Shown here: positions 19,987-28,449 of the stretch, piece after piece | Numbering within the stretch: the stretch's first letter is position 1 | Layout: every line of letters starts with the position of its first letter | NCBI GenBank assembly: GCA_027484165.1 | Contig: JAIXWH010000099.1 | Coordinates: forward strand, 1-37,478 | Reading direction: 5' to 3' | Source of the DNA: Chitinophagaceae bacterium | Lineage (GTDB): Bacteria > Bacteroidota > Bacteroidia > Chitinophagales > Chitinophagaceae | DNA: 37,478 nt | Notes under the pieces: model-generated | The model's input: only the letters and a program-made list of their open reading frames with translations | What the model was told of the DNA's origin: nothing | Database searches by the model: none | Position numbers and translations under genes: made by a program

Positions 19987-21528
19987 ATGGCTTTACCTAA
20001 AGAGCCCAGGCAGAAGATGATTAACCTGATGTACCTGGTGCTTACAGCATTGTTAGCACTAAACGTTTCATCAGAAATTTTGAATGCCTTCAAGGTTGTA
20101 GATAAGAGTTTGATTACATCAAACGAAAATTTGAATTCAGCTAATAGTACTTTGTATACCTCTCTAGAGGCCAAATTAAAAGATCCCATGACTTCTGAAA
20201 AAGCAAAGCCATGGAACGATAAAGCTAATCAGGCTAAAAAGTTATCAGTTGAATTAAGTAATTATATTGATCAATTAAAAATTGATCTCAAAGCTGAAGC
20301 TGGAGCTAAGATGGTTGAAAAAGAGGGTAAAATGGTTGAAGAATTTAAAGAAGATGATTTAGAAGCACCAACTCGCTTATTCGGCAACGAAAAAGGAGGA
20401 AAAAATAAAGGTGTTGAATTAAGAGATAAATTGAATGCCTATAGAGATGCTATGCTTGCTATAGATTCTTCAATTGCTAAAGAATTTTCTACTACGTTTC
20501 CAGTAGATCGCCAAGACAAGATAAAAGGACAGAATGGTAAAGAGAAAGACTTTACTTACGCTTATTTTCACATGACACCAACTGTTGCCGCATTAACCTT
20601 GTTGAGTAAGTTTCAAAACAATGTAAAAAATGCAGAAAATCAAGTTGTAACTTATTGTCATAATCAAGTAGGTGCCGTAAAGGTTGTTTATGATCAATTT
20701 GCTGCTTTAGTTGGACAAAGTTCAAACTATGTAATGCCTGGCGAAGAAGTGGAAATCACTGCTGGAGTTGGTGCATATAGTAAAGCAGCCCAGCCTCAAA
20801 TATCAATTGGAGGTTCTTCAATGGTATTGCAACCTGATGGTAGAGCAAGCTATAAGTTTAAAGCAAATGGTTCAGGATCAAGATCAGTACCAGTTAATGT
20901 TACATATACTAAACCAGACGGTACAAAAGAATCGAAGACATTTGATGTTAAATATACTGTTGGAACCCCTGGTGGAGCTGCAGTAATGCCTGACAAAATG
21001 AATGTGTTCTATATTGGTGTTGATAACCCTGTAACCATTGGTTCTCCAACTGGTTGGGATAAAACAACAGTAAACATTTCAAATGGTACAATAACTGGAT
21101 CAGGTTCAAATCGTGTTATTCGCCCTGCTGCTACTCCCGGTCAAAAAGCTGTGATTACAGTTGTTGCGGATAAAAAACCATCAACTTTCGAATTTAGAAT
21201 CAAGAGAATCCCAGATCCTGTATTTAAAATAGGTTCTGGTAAAATTAGAATGCCGTCAGTTGAGTTTAAAAGTCAACAATTTTGCCGCGCTGAGTTAGAA
21301 AATTTTGATTTCGATCTAAGATTTAGTATTGTTAGTGCTACAGTTTATTTCTCGGGTGCAAACTTTTCAAATGTGGTTACATCAACAATCAATGGAAATA
21401 ATTTATCTTCTTTAGCTTCATTTATATCAAGATGTGGACCGGGTTCTGTTATATCATTTGATAATGTAAAAGTACAAGGACCAGATGGTGTAAGATCTAT
21501 AGAAGGAAAATCAATCGCTCTTTATTAA
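19987..21528 (+). CDS. gldM: Gliding motility / type IX secretion motor protein GldM
   Basis: The partner of GldL: one N-terminal TM helix joins the motor and a long periplasmic rod of stacked domains reaches the GldK/GldN ring. The 513-residue protein starts MALPKEPRQKMINLMYLVLT, with the conserved basic residue R8 just before the helix (about 11-33). The rest is periplasmic. The central region looks helical (about 60-235), and the C-terminal half looks like beta domains with PGEEVEITAGVGAYSKA and Gly/Pro-rich turns. It begins 67 bp after gldL and ends 10 bp before gldN. Confidence 0.96.
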   Translation: MALPKEPRQKMINLMYLVLTALLALNVSSEILNAFKVVDKSLITSNENLNSANSTLYTSLEAKLKDPMTSEKAKPWNDKANQAKKLSVELSNYIDQLKIDLKAEAGAKMVEKEGKMVEEFKEDDLEAPTRLFGNEKGGKNKGVELRDKLNAYRDAMLAIDSSIAKEFSTTFPVDRQDKIKGQNGKEKDFTYAYFHMTPTVAALTLLSKFQNNVKNAENQVVTYCHNQVGAVKVVYDQFAALVGQSSNYVMPGEEVEITAGVGAYSKAAQPQISIGGSSMVLQPDGRASYKFKANGSGSRSVPVNVTYTKPDGTKESKTFDVKYTVGTPGGAAVMPDKMNVFYIGVDNPVTIGSPTGWDKTTVNISNGTITGSGSNRVIRPAATPGQKAVITVVADKKPSTFEFRIKRIPDPVFKIGSGKIRMPSVEFKSQQFCRAELENFDFDLRFSIVSATVYFSGANFSNVVTSTINGNNLSSLASFISRCGPGSVISFDNVKVQGPDGVRSIEGKSIALY

Positions 21529-21538
21529 AATTAATTTT

Positions 21539-22573
21539 ATGAGTAGTAAACTATTTAAGTACGTATTCTTTTTTATCGCATTCTGTTGCATTGCAGAATT
21601 AGCTTCTGCACAAAAAAGAAAATCTACAAAGAAAACCACAAAGGGAAAAACTAGAGCTAATATTCAAGCTTCAGTTCCAACTGCAGATACTACAGCTGTA
21701 GTTACTGCACCTCCTGACACAGCTAAAAAGGATCAAGTGGTGACTATAGATAGTTTTCCTATTCCAAAAATTAAACCTTCATTACGTCCTGACGAATCAG
21801 TAGAAACAACAGTACTAAGAGAGCGTATGCCACTCGCTTACGAACATCTCAGAGCTGATGATGCAGTATATCGTCAAAGAGTTTGGAGAGAGATTGATAC
21901 GAGAGAAAAGATAAATCAAACATTTGCATATGCAGCAAACGAAGATAATGGCAACCAAAGATTTATCTCAATTTTATTACAAACACTTCAAGATTCAACT
22001 AAAGGGATAACAGCTTTTTCTAGTATTGATGATAGATTTACAACACCAATGACAAAAGCTGAACTCATTAAAGGTGTTGTTGGAGATCCTGTAGAAGTAC
22101 CTGAGTATGATTCACTTGGTAATTTGATTGGAACAAAAAAGAAAAATAATGATATCAATTTAGATTCATTTTACAAATTCCACATCAAAGAAGAGGTTGT
22201 TTTTGATAAAGAAAGTTCAAGATTATTTTGGAGAATTCTTGGTATTGCCCCAGTTAAAAATATTTATAATTCAGCTGGATTATACCTAGGTGAGTCAGAG
22301 TTGTTTTGGGTTTATTATCCTGATATGCGTCCTGTATTCTCAAATTATGAAGTATATAATGGAAAGAATTTTGGAAGCAGAATGAGTTGGGATGATTTGT
22401 TTGAAAGCAGAATGTTTAATGGAAGAATAATCAAATGTTCTTTAGACAATCCAAGAGACGAAGCAATTAAAAATATCAAATCATTTGATCAAAAGAATAT
22501 GCTCCAATTGTTTGAAGGAGAAAATATCAAACATAAAATATTTACATACGAGCAAGATCAATGGAGCTATTAA
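21539..22573 (+). CDS. gldN: Gliding motility / type IX secretion ring protein GldN
   Basis: The periplasmic partner of lipoprotein GldK in the type IX secretion ring. The 344-residue protein has a signal peptide (about 1-24, ending ELASAQ), then a Lys/Thr/Pro-rich low-complexity stretch to about residue 85, then the conserved GldN/PorN domain. That domain has RVWREIDTREKINQTFAYAANE and, near the C-terminus, FWVYYPDMRPVFSNYEVYN with SWDDLFESRMFNGRI. It is the last gene of gldKLMN and is followed by a strong inverted-repeat terminator. Confidence 0.95.
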   Translation: MSSKLFKYVFFFIAFCCIAELASAQKRKSTKKTTKGKTRANIQASVPTADTTAVVTAPPDTAKKDQVVTIDSFPIPKIKPSLRPDESVETTVLRERMPLAYEHLRADDAVYRQRVWREIDTREKINQTFAYAANEDNGNQRFISILLQTLQDSTKGITAFSSIDDRFTTPMTKAELIKGVVGDPVEVPEYDSLGNLIGTKKKNNDINLDSFYKFHIKEEVVFDKESSRLFWRILGIAPVKNIYNSAGLYLGESELFWVYYPDMRPVFSNYEVYNGKNFGSRMSWDDLFESRMFNGRIIKCSLDNPRDEAIKNIKSFDQKNMLQLFEGENIKHKIFTYEQDQWSY

Positions 22574-22584
22574 TTTAGTTATTA

Positions 22585-22634
22585 TCTCAAATAAAAAACC
22601 CCTTAATTCAAAATAAGGGGTTTTTTATTTGAGA
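22585..22634. terminator. Bidirectional terminator between gldN and uvrC, perfect 21-bp stem
   Basis: Arms at 22585-22605 and 22614-22634 are perfectly complementary over 21 bp with an 8-base loop (22606-22613). Each strand carries a run of T after the GC-rich core (CCCCTTA/TAAGGGG), so it can stop transcription from both convergent genes. The right arm contains the uvrC stop codon and part of its last three sense codons. Confidence 0.92.
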
Positions 22635-24424
22635 TACTTTTTTATTAATTCAGTTTTTGATTTACCAACTAATTCAATTAGTTCGTTTTCAGCTGTAGCT
22701 TTAATCTTTTTAACCGACTTGAATTTTTTAAGGAGTAAGTCAGCAGTAGAGGTACCTATACCTGGTATAGATTCCAACTCATTTTTAATTGCATTATTGC
22801 TTCTTGTATTTCTATGAAATGTAATTCCAAATCGATGTACCTCATCTCGTATTCTTCGAATTAATTTTAGTATATCGCTATTCCAATCGAATAGAATAGA
22901 TTCCTTATCATTAGCAAAAAATATTTCTTCTTTGTTTTTTGCAAGTCCAACTAATGTTACTTTTCCTCTAATACCCAATTCATCAATTGATTCCAAAGCC
23001 GCATTTAATTGACCTTTACCACCATCTATAATAATCAAATCAGGAAGAGCTTCACTTTCTTTTAATGCTCTATAGTATCTTCTGTATACTATTTCTTTCA
23101 TACTTGAAAAATCATCTATCCCAACAACAGTCTTTATTTTAAACCTTCGATAATCATTTTTCGAAGGGATCCCATCTTTAAAACATACCATAGCCGCAAC
23201 AGCATTACTGCCCTGCAAATTTGAATTATCAAAGCATTCAATATGCCTAGGTATTTTTAATAATCGTAAATTTATTTGAAGCTCTGTCAATAATTTCTCT
23301 CTTTCTTCATCATTTTTATCTTCTAAATGAAGACGCTTTTGATGAGCGATTTCGGTTAAAAAAAAGTTTACATTTTTTTGAGAAAGTTCAAGAAGTTTTT
23401 TCTTGTCGCCTGATTTAGGGACTGTAATTTTTATTTCTTTGTCTGGATATTTTATATCAAAAGGGACAATAATTTCTTTTGCATTGCTTTCGAAATTGTC
23501 TCTTAATTGGGCAATTGCAAATGGCAATACTTGTTCGGCTGTTTCGTCTAATTTTTTTTCTACAAATATTGTTTTTGTGCGAACTACACTTCCATTGTTT
23601 ACTGACAAATAATTGATGTAAGCTAAATTTCCTTCTTCTACTATAGAAAAAATATCAGTTTCGGCAATTTTTGTATTGACAACAGTTGATTTAGCTTGAT
23701 AAGCTGAAAGTAAATTGATTTTATTTTGAAAAAAAGCTGCTTTTTCAAATTCTAAATTTGATGAATGTTCTTTTATTTTATTTTTTAAATCGGTGAGTAA
23801 GGGTTGCAAATTTCCTTTTAATAGAGATTTTAACTGTGATAAACCTTCATTATACTCTTCTATGCTCTGAAAGCCTTCACATGGACCCTTGCAGTTGCCT
23901 AAATGATACTCCAAACAGACTTTGAATTTATTTTTGTTGATTTTGTTAGGAGATAAATTGAGCGTACAAGTTCTGAAAGGAAACATTTGTTTAACGAACT
24001 CAATTATTTCTTTAGCATTTGAAATAGAGCTATAGGGTCCAAAGTATTGAGAACCATCATTTATCTTTTTTCTGGAAAAAAATACACGAGAAAAATCCTC
24101 ATTTTTTATAACAACATAAGGGTAACCCTTGCCGTCTTTTAAATTAATATTATAATGGGGCTGATATTCTTTAATTAGTGAGCTTTCAAGGAAAAAAGCA
24201 TCTTCTTCTGTATCAACAATTGTAAATTCAATAGCATTAATTTTTTTTACTAATTCAATTGTTTTTTGATTAGAAATGTTTTTGTTGAAGTAACTAGATA
24301 CTCTTTTTTTTAAATTCTTTGCCTTTCCAACATAGATAAGTTTATTCGTAGAATCAAAATATTTATAAATCCCAGGAAGTACAGGAATTTTTGACGACAA
24401 TTGACTAAATTCTATCTGATTCAT
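22625..24424 (-). CDS. uvrC: Excinuclease ABC subunit C
   Basis: The nuclease subunit of nucleotide excision repair, cutting on both sides of UvrAB-marked lesions. The 599-residue protein has the GIY-YIG domain (about 14-95, with PGIYKYF and IYVGKAKNLKKRVSSYF), a Cys-rich stretch, and a UVR motif near residues 203-240 (NLEFEKAAFFQNKI). The RNase H-like 5' nuclease domain carries IECFDNSNLQGSNAVAAMV and PDLIIIDGGKGQLNAA. A C-terminal helix-hairpin-helix has IPGIGTSTADLLLKKF. Its ATG at 24424 lies 9 bp after the stop of a lipoprotein gene, which suggests co-transcription with the upstream sigma-factor run. The stop overlaps the terminator. Confidence 0.97.
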   Translation of the reverse strand: MNQIEFSQLSSKIPVLPGIYKYFDSTNKLIYVGKAKNLKKRVSSYFNKNISNQKTIELVKKINAIEFTIVDTEEDAFFLESSLIKEYQPHYNINLKDGKGYPYVVIKNEDFSRVFFSRKKINDGSQYFGPYSSISNAKEIIEFVKQMFPFRTCTLNLSPNKINKNKFKVCLEYHLGNCKGPCEGFQSIEEYNEGLSQLKSLLKGNLQPLLTDLKNKIKEHSSNLEFEKAAFFQNKINLLSAYQAKSTVVNTKIAETDIFSIVEEGNLAYINYLSVNNGSVVRTKTIFVEKKLDETAEQVLPFAIAQLRDNFESNAKEIIVPFDIKYPDKEIKITVPKSGDKKKLLELSQKNVNFFLTEIAHQKRLHLEDKNDEEREKLLTELQINLRLLKIPRHIECFDNSNLQGSNAVAAMVCFKDGIPSKNDYRRFKIKTVVGIDDFSSMKEIVYRRYYRALKESEALPDLIIIDGGKGQLNAALESIDELGIRGKVTLVGLAKNKEEIFFANDKESILFDWNSDILKLIRRIRDEVHRFGITFHRNTRSNNAIKNELESIPGIGTSTADLLLKKFKSVKKIKATAENELIELVGKSKTELIKKYLK

Positions 24425-24433
24425 TTTTAATGA

Positions 24434-25003
24434 TCACCATTTAATACTGATTTCATCTACAATATCAGTAGTGTTTTCAACACTTTTAATTGTAATAATT
24501 TTACAACTCTTTTCAGGTATCCAAGTTAATTGTTTTGTGGTAATACTGTCGATTTGTTTTACTAGATATATCCTTGAAACACAATTGGATTCAGGATTAA
24601 TATATATATCCCAATGTTTCCATGGGCTTATAACCGAATGATTTTCTTTCAAATCGTAACTAAAAGTATATGCATTGATCGTGTTATCAAAAAAAGCACT
24701 TTCTAAATAAGATTTAGCATCATTTAGAGAATCAATTTTTGGGCTAGTAAAGTCTAAAAATTCATTGTGAACTGATTCTAGTTTAATCCAATTTGAATCA
24801 ATAGCAATACCCTTTTTATATAAATATTTAATCGGATTTTTACCTAAAGTTTTTATTTTATTTATTTCTCCTTTAATAAAATCAGTAACAGGAAAAAAAG
24901 ATGAGGCGCTATTTACTTTTTCTGAGATATTGTTTTCATTTTTTTTAACAGAACAAGAAATGAATAAAGTGACAACTAACAATATAAAGTTTTGACTTCT
25001 CAT
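24434..25003 (-). CDS. Uncharacterised lipoprotein in the sigma-factor run
   Basis: A 189-residue predicted lipoprotein. The N-terminal signal has lipobox FISC with Cys17 followed by SVKKNENN. The mature part is polar with mixed beta-type and helical segments and contains PWKHWDIYINPESN near residue 127 and CVSRIYLVKQ after it. I do not recognise a family. It lies 26 bp after the dual-membrane protein gene and 9 bp before uvrC, so its expression is probably tied to the sigma factor. A role with its neighbour at the envelope is an inference only. Confidence 0.75.
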   Translation of the reverse strand: MRSQNFILLVVTLFISCSVKKNENNISEKVNSASSFFPVTDFIKGEINKIKTLGKNPIKYLYKKGIAIDSNWIKLESVHNEFLDFTSPKIDSLNDAKSYLESAFFDNTINAYTFSYDLKENHSVISPWKHWDIYINPESNCVSRIYLVKQIDSITTKQLTWIPEKSCKIITIKSVENTTDIVDEISIKW

Positions 25004-25029
25004 TTACTTTCAAAATTTATTTGTAATGA

Positions 25030-26250
25030 TTAAAACGTTTTTGAAATTCCAAATTTCATTCCAAAATTATATGGGTTGTTGAAGGAATTCATCAAATTGT
25101 TATTGCCTGAAAATAATTGATATCTGAACTGAGGACCAGCATTAAAGTAAGAGTTTTTGTTAATTCTTAAACTTAGATAAGTTTCAAAATTAGAGTTCAA
25201 GTTAAATTTATTTAATTTGAACTGTTCATAAATAGGCAAATAATTTGTATTGTTTGAAACTGGATTGTCATAGATTTTATAGGTTGGCTCTAAACTCGCA
25301 CCTGCGTACCAATGAACTCTGTCGTTTCCAGCAAGTTCAAACTCTGAACCAATTGGGAGTGAAATTCTATATGAATTTAATTCTAAAAGTCCATTTTGAT
25401 TGTCGCTTAGTAAAAAGTAGTTATTGCTTACATTTGTTTGTTTGTTAAAATCAGATTCATTGTTTTCTTCTATGACATTAGAAAAACTTGCTCTTGTGTA
25501 AATGAGTTCTAAACCAGCTTTAATCCGAAAAGAATTACTTATTTGATATAAAATCGCACCACCGGCATTAAGGTTTAAATCGGAATATCGAAATCTTTGT
25601 TTTTTATTCTCTGAAACCTCATTAATTTCTTCAATTCCAGTAGCTTGATTTCTATTTTTTAAATTATTAAAACTCATAGAGGGAGTTGCGTGTATTTCAT
25701 AGGAGAAATTATTAAAATCTTTTTTATTATAGACTAATTTATCAATAGATTTATTCTTAAAATTATTTTCATTAATTTGGTTATTTACAATAAGTCCATC
25801 AAAAGAGATAGGATTGTTATCTTCTTTTAATAAATCATATTTTTGTATTTCAAAATTGGCATGATTCGTAATGATATTCAAACTATCTTTCTCATTTATA
25901 TTAAATTCTATTTGTTGAATTGTTTTTGTTTTATTTTTCAGTAATAATTTCTGATCAACATTGATTTGTATGTTTTGGCTTGATAACAGACTAGAAACAA
26001 TTTTTTTACTACTTTTTATATTTGTTTGTGTTTGTGTAGTTTTAATTGAACTTTTGCTTGTGTTTAAAAAATCAATTGAGAAAAAAATAAATAAAAAAAA
26101 TAGTGCTGTGAGTATAGAAGGTAAATTTTTGCTAGGGTGAATATGATTATAAATACTGAACCAAACCCTTTTATGGGGTGTCATTTTAAAATCTTTCGTG
26201 CTGTTACGAAGGAATTGTTCAAAAGAATCTATGTTATGATAATTACTCAT
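25030..26250 (-). CDS. Putative dual membrane-spanning anti-sigma factor (cytoplasmic segment, TM helix, linker, outer-membrane barrel)
   Basis: A 406-residue protein with an unusual layout. Residues 1-43 are polar with no export signal (FEQFLRNSTKDFK, HKRVWFSIYNHI), resembling short sigma-binding N-termini. Residues 44-61 form one hydrophobic helix. Residues 62-180 are a Lys/Asn/Ser/Thr-rich, probably extended linker. From about 182 to 406, amphipathic strands end in terminal Phe, as in an eight-strand outer-membrane barrel (for example LNLNAGGAILYQI, SFRIKAGLELIY, HWYAGASLEPTY, NFGMKFGISKTF). It starts 21 bp after an ECF sigma gene. This matches the Dma type of anti-sigma factor described in Bacteroides thetaiotaomicron. 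The assignment is inferred from topology and context; sequence homology was not tested. Confidence 0.7.
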   Translation of the reverse strand: MSNYHNIDSFEQFLRNSTKDFKMTPHKRVWFSIYNHIHPSKNLPSILTALFFLFIFFSIDFLNTSKSSIKTTQTQTNIKSSKKIVSSLLSSQNIQINVDQKLLLKNKTKTIQQIEFNINEKDSLNIITNHANFEIQKYDLLKEDNNPISFDGLIVNNQINENNFKNKSIDKLVYNKKDFNNFSYEIHATPSMSFNNLKNRNQATGIEEINEVSENKKQRFRYSDLNLNAGGAILYQISNSFRIKAGLELIYTRASFSNVIEENNESDFNKQTNVSNNYFLLSDNQNGLLELNSYRISLPIGSEFELAGNDRVHWYAGASLEPTYKIYDNPVSNNTNYLPIYEQFKLNKFNLNSNFETYLSLRINKNSYFNAGPQFRYQLFSGNNNLMNSFNNPYNFGMKFGISKTF

Positions 26251-26271
26251 TTTTTACCTCCAGTGATGTCT

Positions 26272-26835
26272 CTATGCTTTTTTAAAATATTCTGCCTGTT
26301 TTTCAATTATCCCTCTCTTAATTAAAATTTCCTGAAGTAATTTCTTGGCCCTTGCATACTGACTTCTGCTTGTAACCTCTTCAATATCTAATAGTCTTGA
26401 AATTTCATGATGAGAATAACCCTCAATTGCATATAAGTTAAGAACAGTTCTGTATCCAACAGGTAGTAATCTAATACTTTCAATTATGTCTTTTGCCTGT
26501 AAAATGGAAGGGATATAGTCCTGAGCAGAATGTATTTCTGATGCATAAGAAATATCAATTGTATCATTGAATTTCTTATGTTTCTTTATGAAATTAATAC
26601 AAGTGTTTACTATGACTTTTCTAATCCATCCCTCCAAAGATCCTTCATTTTTAAATTGATGTAAAAGTGAAAATACTTTGATGAAACCCTCTTGAAGCAT
26701 ATCCTCAGCATCAGCCTTGCTTAAGGCATAACGATAACAAACGCCAAGCATTTTAGGACTATATTTGTTATATAGAAGCTGTTGCGCATTAGCGTTATTT
26801 ATTTTACTACCAACAAGCATTTGCTCTTCGGTCAT
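26272..26835 (-). CDS. ECF (sigma-70 family) RNA polymerase sigma factor
   Basis: A 187-residue alternative sigma factor. Region 2 covers about 20-86, with YNKYSPKMLGVCYRYALSK, the acidic DAEDMLQEGFIKVF and EGWIRKVIVNTCINF. Region 4 covers about 118-172, with LPVGYRTVLNLYAIEGYSH and a helix-turn-helix HEISRLLDIEEVTSRSQYAR. No region 1 or 3 is present, as expected for ECF. It is the first gene of a four-gene run with the putative membrane-spanning anti-sigma factor. A -7 element in its own upstream region suggests at least partly housekeeping expression. Confidence 0.94.
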   Translation of the reverse strand: MTEEQMLVGSKINNANAQQLLYNKYSPKMLGVCYRYALSKADAEDMLQEGFIKVFSLLHQFKNEGSLEGWIRKVIVNTCINFIKKHKKFNDTIDISYASEIHSAQDYIPSILQAKDIIESIRLLPVGYRTVLNLYAIEGYSHHEISRLLDIEEVTSRSQYARAKKLLQEILIKRGIIEKQAEYFKKA

Positions 26836-26852
26836 ATATAAATATTAAGTAC

Positions 26853-26860
26853 CAAATATA
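26853..26860 (-). promoter_or_regulatory. -7 promoter element upstream of the ECF sigma gene
   Basis: On the minus strand this reads TATATTTG, an exact TAnnTTTG match 17 bp before the sigma-factor ATG. A TTTG lies 14 bp further upstream (26875-26878), a spacing shorter than usual. Confidence 0.4.
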
Positions 26861-26931
26861 CCACTTTTTATCGTCAAATAATGTAAACATTTAGTCAATA
26901 GAAAGTACCCATAATTACAAAATATCAAAAG

Positions 26932-28449
26932 CTAAGAAATTAGAACATTTCCTTTCATTTCTTCTGGAATAGGTAATCCCATAGTTTTTAATAGTGTAGG
27001 TGCAATATCTCCAAGTTTGCCAGATTTTAAATTACCATGCCAATTTTTATCAATAATAAAAAACGGAACAGGGTTTAACGTATGAGCAGTGTTAGGACTT
27101 CCATCTTCATTAATTTCATAATCAGCGTTTCCATGATCTGCAGTTAAGAAAACGGTGTAGTCGTACTCAAGAGCGGAGTTAACTACTTTTTCAACACAGC
27201 TATCTACTGTTTCAACAGCTTTAATCACTGCATTCCAAACGCCGGTATGACCAACCATATCTGCATTAGCAAAGTTCAAACAAATAAAATCAGGATGGTT
27301 TGTAGAAATTTCATTGATAACGGCTTGGGTAACTTCATGTGCACTCATTTCTGGCTGTAAATCATAAGTGGCCACTTTTGGTGAAGGTATCATTATTCTT
27401 TTTTCACCATTAAATGGATTTTCTCTTCCGCCATTAAAAAAGAAACTTACATGAGGATATTTTTCTGTTTCAGCAATACGTAATTGAGTTTTACCATTTG
27501 CTGCTAAGATTTCACCCAAAGTATTTTTTAAATCTTCATTTTGAAATATCACATGTACATTATTGAATTTATGATCATACTGTGTCATTGTTGTATAATG
27601 AAGATTCAATTTTTTCATGTCATGATCAGGCATGTCCATTTGAGTAAGTACTTCTGTTATTTCTCTGCACCTGTCTGTTCTGTAATTGAAAGCAATGACA
27701 GCATCTCCATCATTAATTTTTGTGTTGACTAAATTGCTGTTTATAATCGGTTTTATAAATTCGTCTGTAATGTTATTGTCATAAGATGATTTAATCTCAC
27801 TTAAGATATCATTTGAATGAACACCAGTTCCATTAACCATTCCATCATATGCAATCTTTATTCTTTCCCATCTTTTATCCCTGTCCATTGCATAATAACG
27901 TCCTGTAATGGTGGCAATTTTTCCCGTAGTATTTTCCATAGCTTTCAACAGCTCTTCAATAAATTTTAATCCTGATTTTGGATCAGTATCTCTTCCATCA
28001 GTAAAGGCATGAACAAGCACTTCTTGAAAGTTGTTTTCAGCACAAATAGATAATATTTCTTTCAAATGATTGATGTGAGAATGAACACCACCATCACTTA
28101 CCAAACCCAACAAATGCAGTGTTTTATTATTGTCTTTTGCATATTGAATTGAATTTAACAAGGTATTGTTCTTCGCAAACTTTTTTTCTCTTATTGCTAC
28201 GTTAATTCTTTGTAACTCTTGATAAACTATTCTCCCAGCGCCTATGTTTAAATGCCCCACTTCACTATTACCCATTTGTCCATCGGGTAATCCTACATCC
28301 TCACCGCAAGTAATTAATGTGGTATTGGGATATTTATGATAAAGAGAATTTACAAAGGGTACGTTGGCGTTTTGAATGGCATCACTTCTTTTTTCCTTTC
28401 CTAAACCCCATCCATCCATGATAATTAATATGATTTTCTTTGCTTTCAT
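26932..28449 (-). CDS. gpmI: 2,3-bisphosphoglycerate-independent phosphoglycerate mutase
   Basis: The glycolytic and gluconeogenic interconversion of 3- and 2-phosphoglycerate, using two metal ions and a phosphoserine intermediate. The 505-residue length is standard. The metal ligand D12 in MDGWGLGK and the nucleophile S62 in GQMGNSEVGHLNIGAGR are present. Further family motifs are HAFTDGRDTDP, GRYYAMDRDKRWER and the C-terminal metal site LTADHGNADY. The gene is alone, divergent from nadC, and 96 bp upstream of the sigma-factor start. Confidence 0.97.
   Translation of the reverse strand: MKAKKIILIIMDGWGLGKEKRSDAIQNANVPFVNSLYHKYPNTTLITCGEDVGLPDGQMGNSEVGHLNIGAGRIVYQELQRINVAIREKKFAKNNTLLNSIQYAKDNNKTLHLLGLVSDGGVHSHINHLKEILSICAENNFQEVLVHAFTDGRDTDPKSGLKFIEELLKAMENTTGKIATITGRYYAMDRDKRWERIKIAYDGMVNGTGVHSNDILSEIKSSYDNNITDEFIKPIINSNLVNTKINDGDAVIAFNYRTDRCREITEVLTQMDMPDHDMKKLNLHYTTMTQYDHKFNNVHVIFQNEDLKNTLGEILAANGKTQLRIAETEKYPHVSFFFNGGRENPFNGEKRIMIPSPKVATYDLQPEMSAHEVTQAVINEISTNHPDFICLNFANADMVGHTGVWNAVIKAVETVDSCVEKVVNSALEYDYTVFLTADHGNADYEINEDGSPNTAHTLNPVPFFIIDKNWHGNLKSGKLGDIAPTLLKTMGLPIPEEMKGNVLIS

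What the first reader, a model, noticed from the sequence alone, without database searches (positions are those of the whole stretch)
24434..26835. ECF sigma factor paired with a protein that appears to span both membranes: a Dma-type signalling module outside Bacteroides
Directly seen: an ECF sigma gene, then 21 bp later a 406-aa protein with no signal peptide, a 43-residue polar N-terminus, one TM helix (44-61), a linker of about 120 residues rich in K/N/S/T, and a barrel-like C-terminus ending in Phe. Established: dual membrane-spanning anti-sigma factors (Dma) with this architecture were recently described in Bacteroides thetaiotaomicron, where they affect vesiculation. Inferred: this protein holds the sigma factor at the inner membrane while its barrel senses the outer membrane, with no separate relay. 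If right, it extends the class to another lineage and adds a lipoprotein and uvrC to the unit.
Basis: partly seen in the sequence, partly recalled or inferred. Interest (0 to 1): 0.75.

Follow-up and report, generated by a model that had tools for sequence, protein, structure and literature searches.

The report
Envelope-spanning anti-sigma factor in Chitinophagaceae
Next to a stress-type sigma factor this bacterium carries a single protein that is predicted to reach from the cytoplasm through both membranes to the cell surface, the same kind of switch recently described in gut Bacteroides, here found to be a well-kept gene pair in the family Chitinophagaceae.

Summary
An ECF sigma gene (26272-26835, minus strand) is followed 21 bp later by a 406-aa protein: polar N-terminus, one TM helix (46-62), a 119-residue disordered tether and an eight-stranded OmpA-like barrel ending in Phe. 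It works like, and by architecture belongs with, the Dma/Reo anti-sigma factors, a published class said to be found solely among Bacteroidota; so this is a new member, not a new class. New here: the pair is conserved in Chitinophagaceae (79 of 80 titled sigma loci have the partner downstream; 21 of 21 sigma-positive family genomes, but 1 weak match in 7 without). Where sigma is lost, the partner is gone or has lost its first helix. No tether is shorter than 109 residues in 109 homologues. Most sigma genes follow a promoter, GCAGC-N16/17-TGTC, whose strict form occurs at most once per genome; the window's own clade lacks it. Lipoprotein and uvrC are steady neighbours but stay when the pair is lost. 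Sigma binding, outer-membrane location and the signal are inferred; the sigma/N-terminus model was inconclusive; ECF21 membership could not be tested.

The parts
26272..26835 (-). ECF sigma factor, 187 aa
   Evidence: 38 genus orthologues 60-71% identical in A2
25030..26250 (-). 406-aa envelope-spanning anti-sigma factor candidate (Dma/Reo type)
26119..26250 (-). residues 1-44: inferred sigma-binding segment with invariant Trp30
   Evidence: W30 in 109 of 109 homologues, mean pairwise identity 0.47 over residues 5-44; eroded where sigma is lost
26065..26115 (-). residues 46-62: single transmembrane helix
25708..26064 (-). residues 63-181: disordered, inferred periplasmic tether
   Evidence: pLDDT under 50 nearly throughout; 119 residues, range 109-283 in 109 homologues
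25033..25707 (-). residues 182-406: predicted eight-stranded outer-membrane beta-barrel
   Evidence: strands 182-195, 222-236, 241-256, 289-308 (with a break), 312-332, 349-364, 367-381, 394-405; OmpA/NspA/OmpW fold; OMP_b-brl_2 in 16 of 41 aligned proteins, not in the window's own
24434..25003 (-). 189-aa lipoprotein-like protein, conserved neighbour, not obligate partner
   Evidence: Cys17 invariant in 29 of 29 aligned; kept where the sigma pair is lost
22625..24424 (-). uvrC, conserved co-directional neighbour
   Evidence: name recalled from the sequence, no family scan made; position
26836..26931 (-). sigma upstream region between gpmI (name recalled) and sigma; the promoter GCAGC-N16/17-TGTC of relatives is absent here

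Best explanation
The 406-aa protein is the cognate anti-sigma factor of the adjacent ECF sigma factor, built as one chain that spans the whole envelope. Residues 1-44 hold the sigma factor at the cytoplasmic face of the inner membrane (inferred), residues 46-62 cross the inner membrane (predicted), a disordered tether of 119 residues crosses the periplasm (predicted disorder, inferred place), and residues 182-406 form an eight-stranded barrel (predicted) in the outer membrane (inferred), with long external loops and short periplasmic turns. The most likely working mode, by analogy with Reo and Dma, is that disturbance of the outer membrane, or failure of the barrel to assemble there, ends the anti-sigma hold (probably by cutting of the unassembled or strained chain), freeing sigma. 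In most relatives freed sigma would drive its own operon through GCAGC-N16/17-TGTC, a positive loop that also renews the anti-sigma factor; the window's own clade lacks that promoter. Lipoprotein and uvrC ride along downstream and are not needed for the switch.
For: Architecture and fold. Pairing: 79 of 80 titled sigma loci have the anti-sigma ORF downstream, the exception L178 being a contig end; all 25 family-level sigma orthologues have a downstream ORF with this N-terminus and TM helix; 21 of 21 sigma-positive family genomes match the anti-sigma profile at E 7.8e-57 or better, while of 7 without the orthologue 6 have no match at 1e-8 and 1 has a weak one at 5.3e-10. Co-loss: G024, G027, G048 and G038 lack both genes at the locus; G049 lost sigma and the first helix; G007 and G056 lost sigma and keep only 116- and 90-aa stubs. 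Selection: N-terminus 0.47, TM 0.24, tether 0.12, barrel 0.36 mean pairwise identity, W30 in 109 of 109. Tether never under 109 residues, contour 41 nm. Promoter: 96 of 142 sigma upstream regions (three sets that share genomes) against a mean of 0.46 in shuffles and 3 on the reverse strand; strict form once each in 39 of 97 family genomes, none in 58, reversed-pattern control 1 match in all; 21 of the 30 loci read lie 20-25 bp before a sigma orthologue. In B. thetaiotaomicron the dma2 deletion chiefly changes its own operon and PULs (PMC13088901 section 7).
Against: No measured interaction. The sigma plus N-terminus model had pTM 0.44 and block pLDDT 48-68 over the N-terminal segment, and coordinates could not be inspected. 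Distance correlation with sigma is not specific to the N-terminus: partial r 0.60, but barrel 0.69, TM 0.57, lipoprotein 0.49. The window itself lacks the promoter of its relatives. G049 keeps tether and barrel (388-aa ORF) without sigma, so the barrel may have a use of its own or the loss is recent. A looser promoter pattern gives about 45 further matches in 18 genomes against 6 for the reversed pattern, an excess I have not explained. Signal and release step are untested.
Confidence: 0.72

Rival explanations
1. The barrel is a ligand sensor (for example for a glycan) whose external loops bind a surface molecule, and binding rather than stress releases sigma.
For: Four external loops in the predicted topology, the third with conserved residues in relatives; a glycan-sensing model is proposed for Dma2 (PMC13088901 section 11).
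Against: The neighbours recognised are gpmI, uvrC and gld genes (names recalled), no nutrient-uptake locus; but unlabelled neighbouring ORFs were not scanned. The window's own third loop departs from the consensus.
Confidence: 0.2
2. The tether is a strain gauge: it reports the distance between the two membranes, and tension on the N-terminal segment or TM helix releases sigma.
For: Lower bound of 109 residues in 109 homologues and a range to 283; a worm-like-chain estimate with assumed persistence length 0.5 nm and assumed gaps of 15-30 nm gives about 5-22 pN for the window's 119 residues and 2-4 pN for the longest.
Against: Tether length varies widely (sd 37 against 8 for the barrel), unlike a ruler; all forces rest on assumed gaps and assumed physics.
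Confidence: 0.1
3. The 406-aa protein is an outer-membrane protein that merely lies beside the sigma gene; the real anti-sigma factor is elsewhere.
For: No interaction has been measured; the barrel survives without sigma in G049.
Against: Near-perfect pairing and co-loss over a family; polar N-terminus before the TM helix; an N-terminal motif shared by 27 of 29 proteins beside other, distant ECF genes against 1 of 31 control ORFs.
Confidence: 0.06
4. Sigma, anti-sigma, lipoprotein and uvrC form one functional response operon (envelope damage plus DNA repair).
For: Same strand and order: lipoprotein in 71 and uvrC in 68 of 80 loci, eight of the nine loci without lipoprotein ending at the contig edge; no terminator-like site on that strand between sigma and the uvrC start.
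Against: Lipoprotein and uvrC are kept without the pair in G024, G027, G048 and G038 (the first three are near kin); L165 has the pair without either although the locus goes on.
Confidence: 0.2

Closest known systems
Dma1/Dma2 with Das1/Das2, Bacteroides thetaiotaomicron (PMC13088901, sections named above; first paper PNAS 2024, PMC10927553, not held)
   Same: Order of parts (N-terminal sigma-binding segment, one TM helix, disordered tether, C-terminal barrel), gene beside an ECF sigma gene, a third gene downstream of dma2, own operon among the chief targets.
   Different: Other lineage; ECF21 group not tested; no NigD_N match in this genome at E up to 0.01; the third gene has no Pfam match in the window, PepSY at best 0.002 in 5 of 29 relatives; vesiculation unknown. 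No direct sequence comparison was possible.
EcfO/Reo, Phocaeicola vulgatus and Bacteroides fragilis (PMC9308784, PMC13114119, passages read)
   Same: Sigma gene followed by an anti-sigma gene predicted to span the periplasm with an outer-membrane barrel; the sigma gene rises on activation.
   Different: Its reported regulon (NigD proteins, longer O-antigen, toxin protection) has no counterpart found here; sequences not compared.
OmpA/NspA/OmpW eight-stranded barrels
   Different: Joined here to an inner-membrane helix and a cytoplasmic segment; a shared fold shows no shared function.
Membrane-bound anti-sigma factors such as RseA and MucA (recalled)
   Same: Cytoplasmic segment, TM helix, periplasmic part, gene next to an ECF sigma gene.
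   Different: Here a barrel is predicted to reach the outer membrane; class I anti-sigma domains sit beside only 6% of Bacteroidetes ECFs (PMC7406223, passage read).

Membership tests
Dma family | N-terminal anti-sigma binding segment | tested here: inconclusive
   Conserved segment, coupled to sigma by co-loss; interaction model inconclusive.
Dma family | one transmembrane helix after it | tested here: met
   Helix 46-62, hydrophobic maximum from residue 45.
Dma family | long intrinsically disordered tether | tested here: met
   64-181 nearly all pLDDT under 50; 119 residues.
Dma family | C-terminal beta-barrel | tested here: met
   Eight strands, OmpA-like fold, OMP_b-brl_2 in 16 of 41 aligned proteins; the window protein itself has no barrel match in Pfam.
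Dma family | adjacent ECF21-group sigma factor | tested here: inconclusive
   Adjacent ECF sigma shown; no ECF-group models or named Bacteroides reference were at hand to assign the group.
Dma family | deletion raises vesiculation through the cognate sigma factor | not testable with these tools
   Needs a mutant.
Dma family | found in Bacteroidota | tested here: met
   Nearest titled relatives are Ferruginibacter, Sediminibacterium, Pinibacter, Lacibacter, Segetibacter and MAGs titled Chitinophagaceae or Bacteroidetes.
ECF sigma factors | sigma regions 2 and 4 | tested here: met
   Pfam Sigma70_r2 3.3e-16, Sigma70_r4_2 5.2e-11; NCBIfam sigma70-ECF 7e-25, over its cut-off.

The most novel reading that the evidence does not exclude
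The N-terminal segment defines a missing anti-sigma class of Bacteroidota: a helix, then Pro-x(3-5)-Trp-x2-hydrophobic in a second helix, then one TM helix, seen beside 27 of the 29 distant ECF genes read, whose sensor end is exchanged among outer-membrane barrels, short ends and, in L120, PKD plus a type IX secretion domain. The barrel form would be an envelope-assembly checkpoint: the anti-sigma factor is itself a client of the barrel-assembly machinery, so sigma is held only while new barrels reach the outer membrane, with no separate relay.
Probability: 0.28. Interest if true: 0.72.

Novelty: new member of a known kind. Interest (0 to 1): 0.45.

Why it matters
If true, one-chain signalling from outer membrane to sigma factor is kept at one locus in most sampled Chitinophagaceae (21 of 28 family genomes), not only in gut Bacteroidales. 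The family offers a natural loss series, a range of tether lengths and a specific reporter promoter, with which the open question of how such a protein passes its signal can be tested, for example in the culture-collection strains Sediminibacterium goheungense DSM 28323 and Ferruginibacter paludis CECT 8366, whose sigma genes carry the promoter.

Tried and rejected
Distance correlation of sigma with parts of the partner over 48 loci: all parts track sigma about alike, so it does not single out the N-terminus. Regulon search: the looser pattern GCAGC-N16/17-TGTCTA gave 63 matches in 18 genomes against 6 for the reversed pattern. Of the 30 loci read, 13 are sigma promoters; of the other 17, 12 overlap an ORF of 80 aa or more and 5 do not; 33 matches were not read. 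By eye no target recurred between genomes; L270 (TonB-dependent-receptor-like ORF, 62 bp downstream) and L269 are single leads. The excess over the reversed pattern is unexplained, perhaps codon usage. NigD_N in the window's genome: none at E up to 0.01. Relatives of the anti-sigma profile in PDB sequences: none up to E 1. Pfam matches of the window protein (Endotoxin_C2, DUF6061) are under cut-off in the tether and were rejected. Direct comparison with Dma1, Dma2 or Reo was not possible: no named Bacteroides genome came to hand (Bacteroides ihuae appears only as a control name). The regular expression was written after looking at the sequences, which favours its 27 of 29. Papers PMC8999054, PMC12045153 and PMC12596196 were seen in passages only and add nothing decisive. 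That this pair is not in print for Chitinophagaceae rests on (0 papers; 1 paper, a genome announcement, listing seen only), in a library that lacks the first Dma paper and most subscription journals.

Full report
WHAT IS THERE. On the minus strand of the window lie gpmI (26932-28449), an ECF sigma gene (26272-26835), the 406-aa ORF (25030-26250, 21 nt after sigma), a 189-aa lipoprotein-like ORF (24434-25003) and uvrC (22625-24424) (the names gpmI and uvrC are recalled from the sequences, not from a family scan). The sigma protein carries regions 2 and 4. The 406-aa protein has no family match above cut-off; 16 of 41 aligned proteins match OMP_b-brl_2 (best 6.6e-09).

WHO HAS IT. The protein matches in 54 of 98 genomes searched, all 54 among the 59 genomes of genus g1, own genome included; the five g1 genomes without a match are G010, G024, G027, G038 and G048. 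Titled relatives place the genus near Ferruginibacter in Chitinophagaceae. The sigma orthologue is sharply bimodal: in 148 genomes of the order there are 25 matches of 293.8 bits or more, all in the family (own, 3 of the genus, 21 of 28 other family genomes), then a drop to 209.8. All 25 have a downstream ORF with the N-terminal motif and TM helix (in L088 the contig ends after 68 residues, and several others run off the 1500-base flank). In the same 28 family genomes the anti-sigma profile finds 21 of 21 sigma-positive genomes and, among the 7 others, one weak match.

NATURAL LOSSES. Fourteen genomes, the own among them, were searched with sigma and the region between gpmI and uvrC was read where it could be. 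G024, G027, G048 and G038 have neither sigma nor its partner there, yet keep the lipoprotein and uvrC; the best sigma matches left in G024 and G048 are 43-45% identical paralogues, and G027 and G038 have none at the cut-off. G049 has no sigma at the locus and its 388-aa ORF lacks the first helix but keeps W30, TM helix, tether and barrel. G007 and G056 have no sigma there and keep stubs of 116 and 90 aa. On a uvrC tree of 48 rows these fall in about four places, not all well supported; G024, G027, G048 and G049 group together. Among the loci read none keeps sigma without partner, or an intact N-terminus without sigma, once contig ends are set aside (L028, L030, L038, L046, L081, L082, L178). 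G010 (77% complete) has no partner and only paralogues, and its locus was not found. This is the best evidence that the two are one unit, and it shows that lipoprotein and uvrC do not depend on them.

WHERE SELECTION ACTS. In 109 non-identical homologues of at least 380 aa the segment 5-44 is best conserved (mean pairwise identity 0.47; barrel 0.36, TM 0.24, tether 0.12). W30 is invariant, E11 99%, P25 97%, L14 95%. The tether has 109-283 residues (median 187, sd 37), the barrel 207-250 (sd 8). The window's 119 is near the shortest. Every tether, fully stretched, reaches 41 nm or more, as the model requires.

PROMOTER. Upstream of sigma, 59 of 81, 18 of 36 and 19 of 25 regions in three sets that share genomes hold GCAGC-N13..19-TGTC; 95 of these 96 have a spacer of 16 or 17; single-base shuffles give a mean of 0.46 of 142 and the reverse strand 3. 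The strict form GCAGC-N16/17-TGTCTANATT occurs once each in 39 of 97 family genomes and not in 58 (reversed pattern: 1 match in all); 21 of the 30 loci read sit 20-25 bp before a sigma orthologue, 9 do not, and nine matches were not read. So the likely main target is the own operon, which is also among the chief targets of Dma2 (PMC13088901 section 7). The looser form is not unique: 63 matches in 18 genomes against 6 for the reversed pattern, without a recurring further target among the 30 read. The window and its clade mates G012, G005, G011, G046, G030, G052 and G017, and also G039 and G057, lack the element even in a relaxed form, which 29 of 38 genus genomes read have (for G017 only 57 bases upstream were available). 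Loss of autoregulation there is inferred.

RELATION TO KNOWN SYSTEMS. The Dma papers define the class by N-terminal binding segment, TM helix, disordered tether, barrel and neighbouring ECF21 sigma, and call it found solely among Bacteroidota (PMC13088901: abstract, sections 3, 5, 7 and 11 and passages read). Reo of Phocaeicola vulgatus is described as spanning all compartments and likely sensing outer-membrane stress (PMC13114119, passages; PMC9308784, passages). Three structural features are met here, binding and ECF21 are inconclusive, vesiculation is untestable. I therefore file it as a new member, with good confidence in the way it works and less in the exact group.

WIDER PATTERN. Beside the 29 distant ECF genes whose loci were given (L112-L140), 27 downstream proteins carry the P-x(3-5)-W-x2-[IVLMF]-like motif in the first 60 residues against 1 of 31 control ORFs of the same loci; 17 of these are short (219-334 aa) and 10 long (429-499, some cut by the flank). 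Of eight long ones scanned, two of which lack the motif (L117, L121), seven have some barrel match at E up to 0.1, one of them over cut-off (L135); L114 has none. A coevolution study found class I anti-sigma domains beside only 6% of Bacteroidetes ECFs (PMC7406223, passage). The shared segment is a candidate for the class that fills this gap.

LIMITS. No interaction, location or signal is measured. The sigma plus N-terminus model is inconclusive. Sequence comparison with Dma and Reo could not be made.

Noticed in passing
L120:2030-3031 (+): A 334-aa protein beside an ECF sigma gene has the N-terminal W-motif and a TM helix, then a PKD domain and a CHU_C type IX secretion domain: perhaps another way for an anti-sigma factor to reach the surface.
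   Followed up: no
window 19987-22573: gldM- and gldN-like genes (names recalled) lie convergent to uvrC; this order is kept in many relatives but not in the sigma-less genomes G024, G027 and G048, where another ORF of 612-621 aa lies beyond uvrC.
   Followed up: no
L083:2201-2692; L079:5158-5661; L084:1291-1788; L085:5980-6480: ORFs of 163-167 aa beside gpmI at or near the sigma position in four genomes; the L083 one has a CxxCH motif and looks like a haem-binding protein. Whether all four are one family was not tested.
   Followed up: no
L033:4425-5591: A relative without sigma at the locus and without the first anti-sigma helix keeps an open 388-aa frame with tether and barrel.
   Followed up: partly
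window 26836-26931: The window's clade lacks the GCAGC promoter of its relatives; TATATTTG stands in the window where many relatives have TCTATATTTA.
   Followed up: partly
window 24434-25003: Lipoprotein family with invariant Cys17 and several invariant Trp and Lys positions, five of 29 members with weak PepSY matches (best 0.002), no PDB match with E under 0.2.
   Followed up: partly
window 22586-22633: Strong palindromic terminator-like site (20 pairs) between the converging gldN-like and uvrC genes.
   Followed up: no
L270:1501 (-): Sigma-promoter-like site 62 bp before a TonB-dependent-receptor-like ORF in G053; a similar site is listed for G035 but was not read.
   Followed up: no
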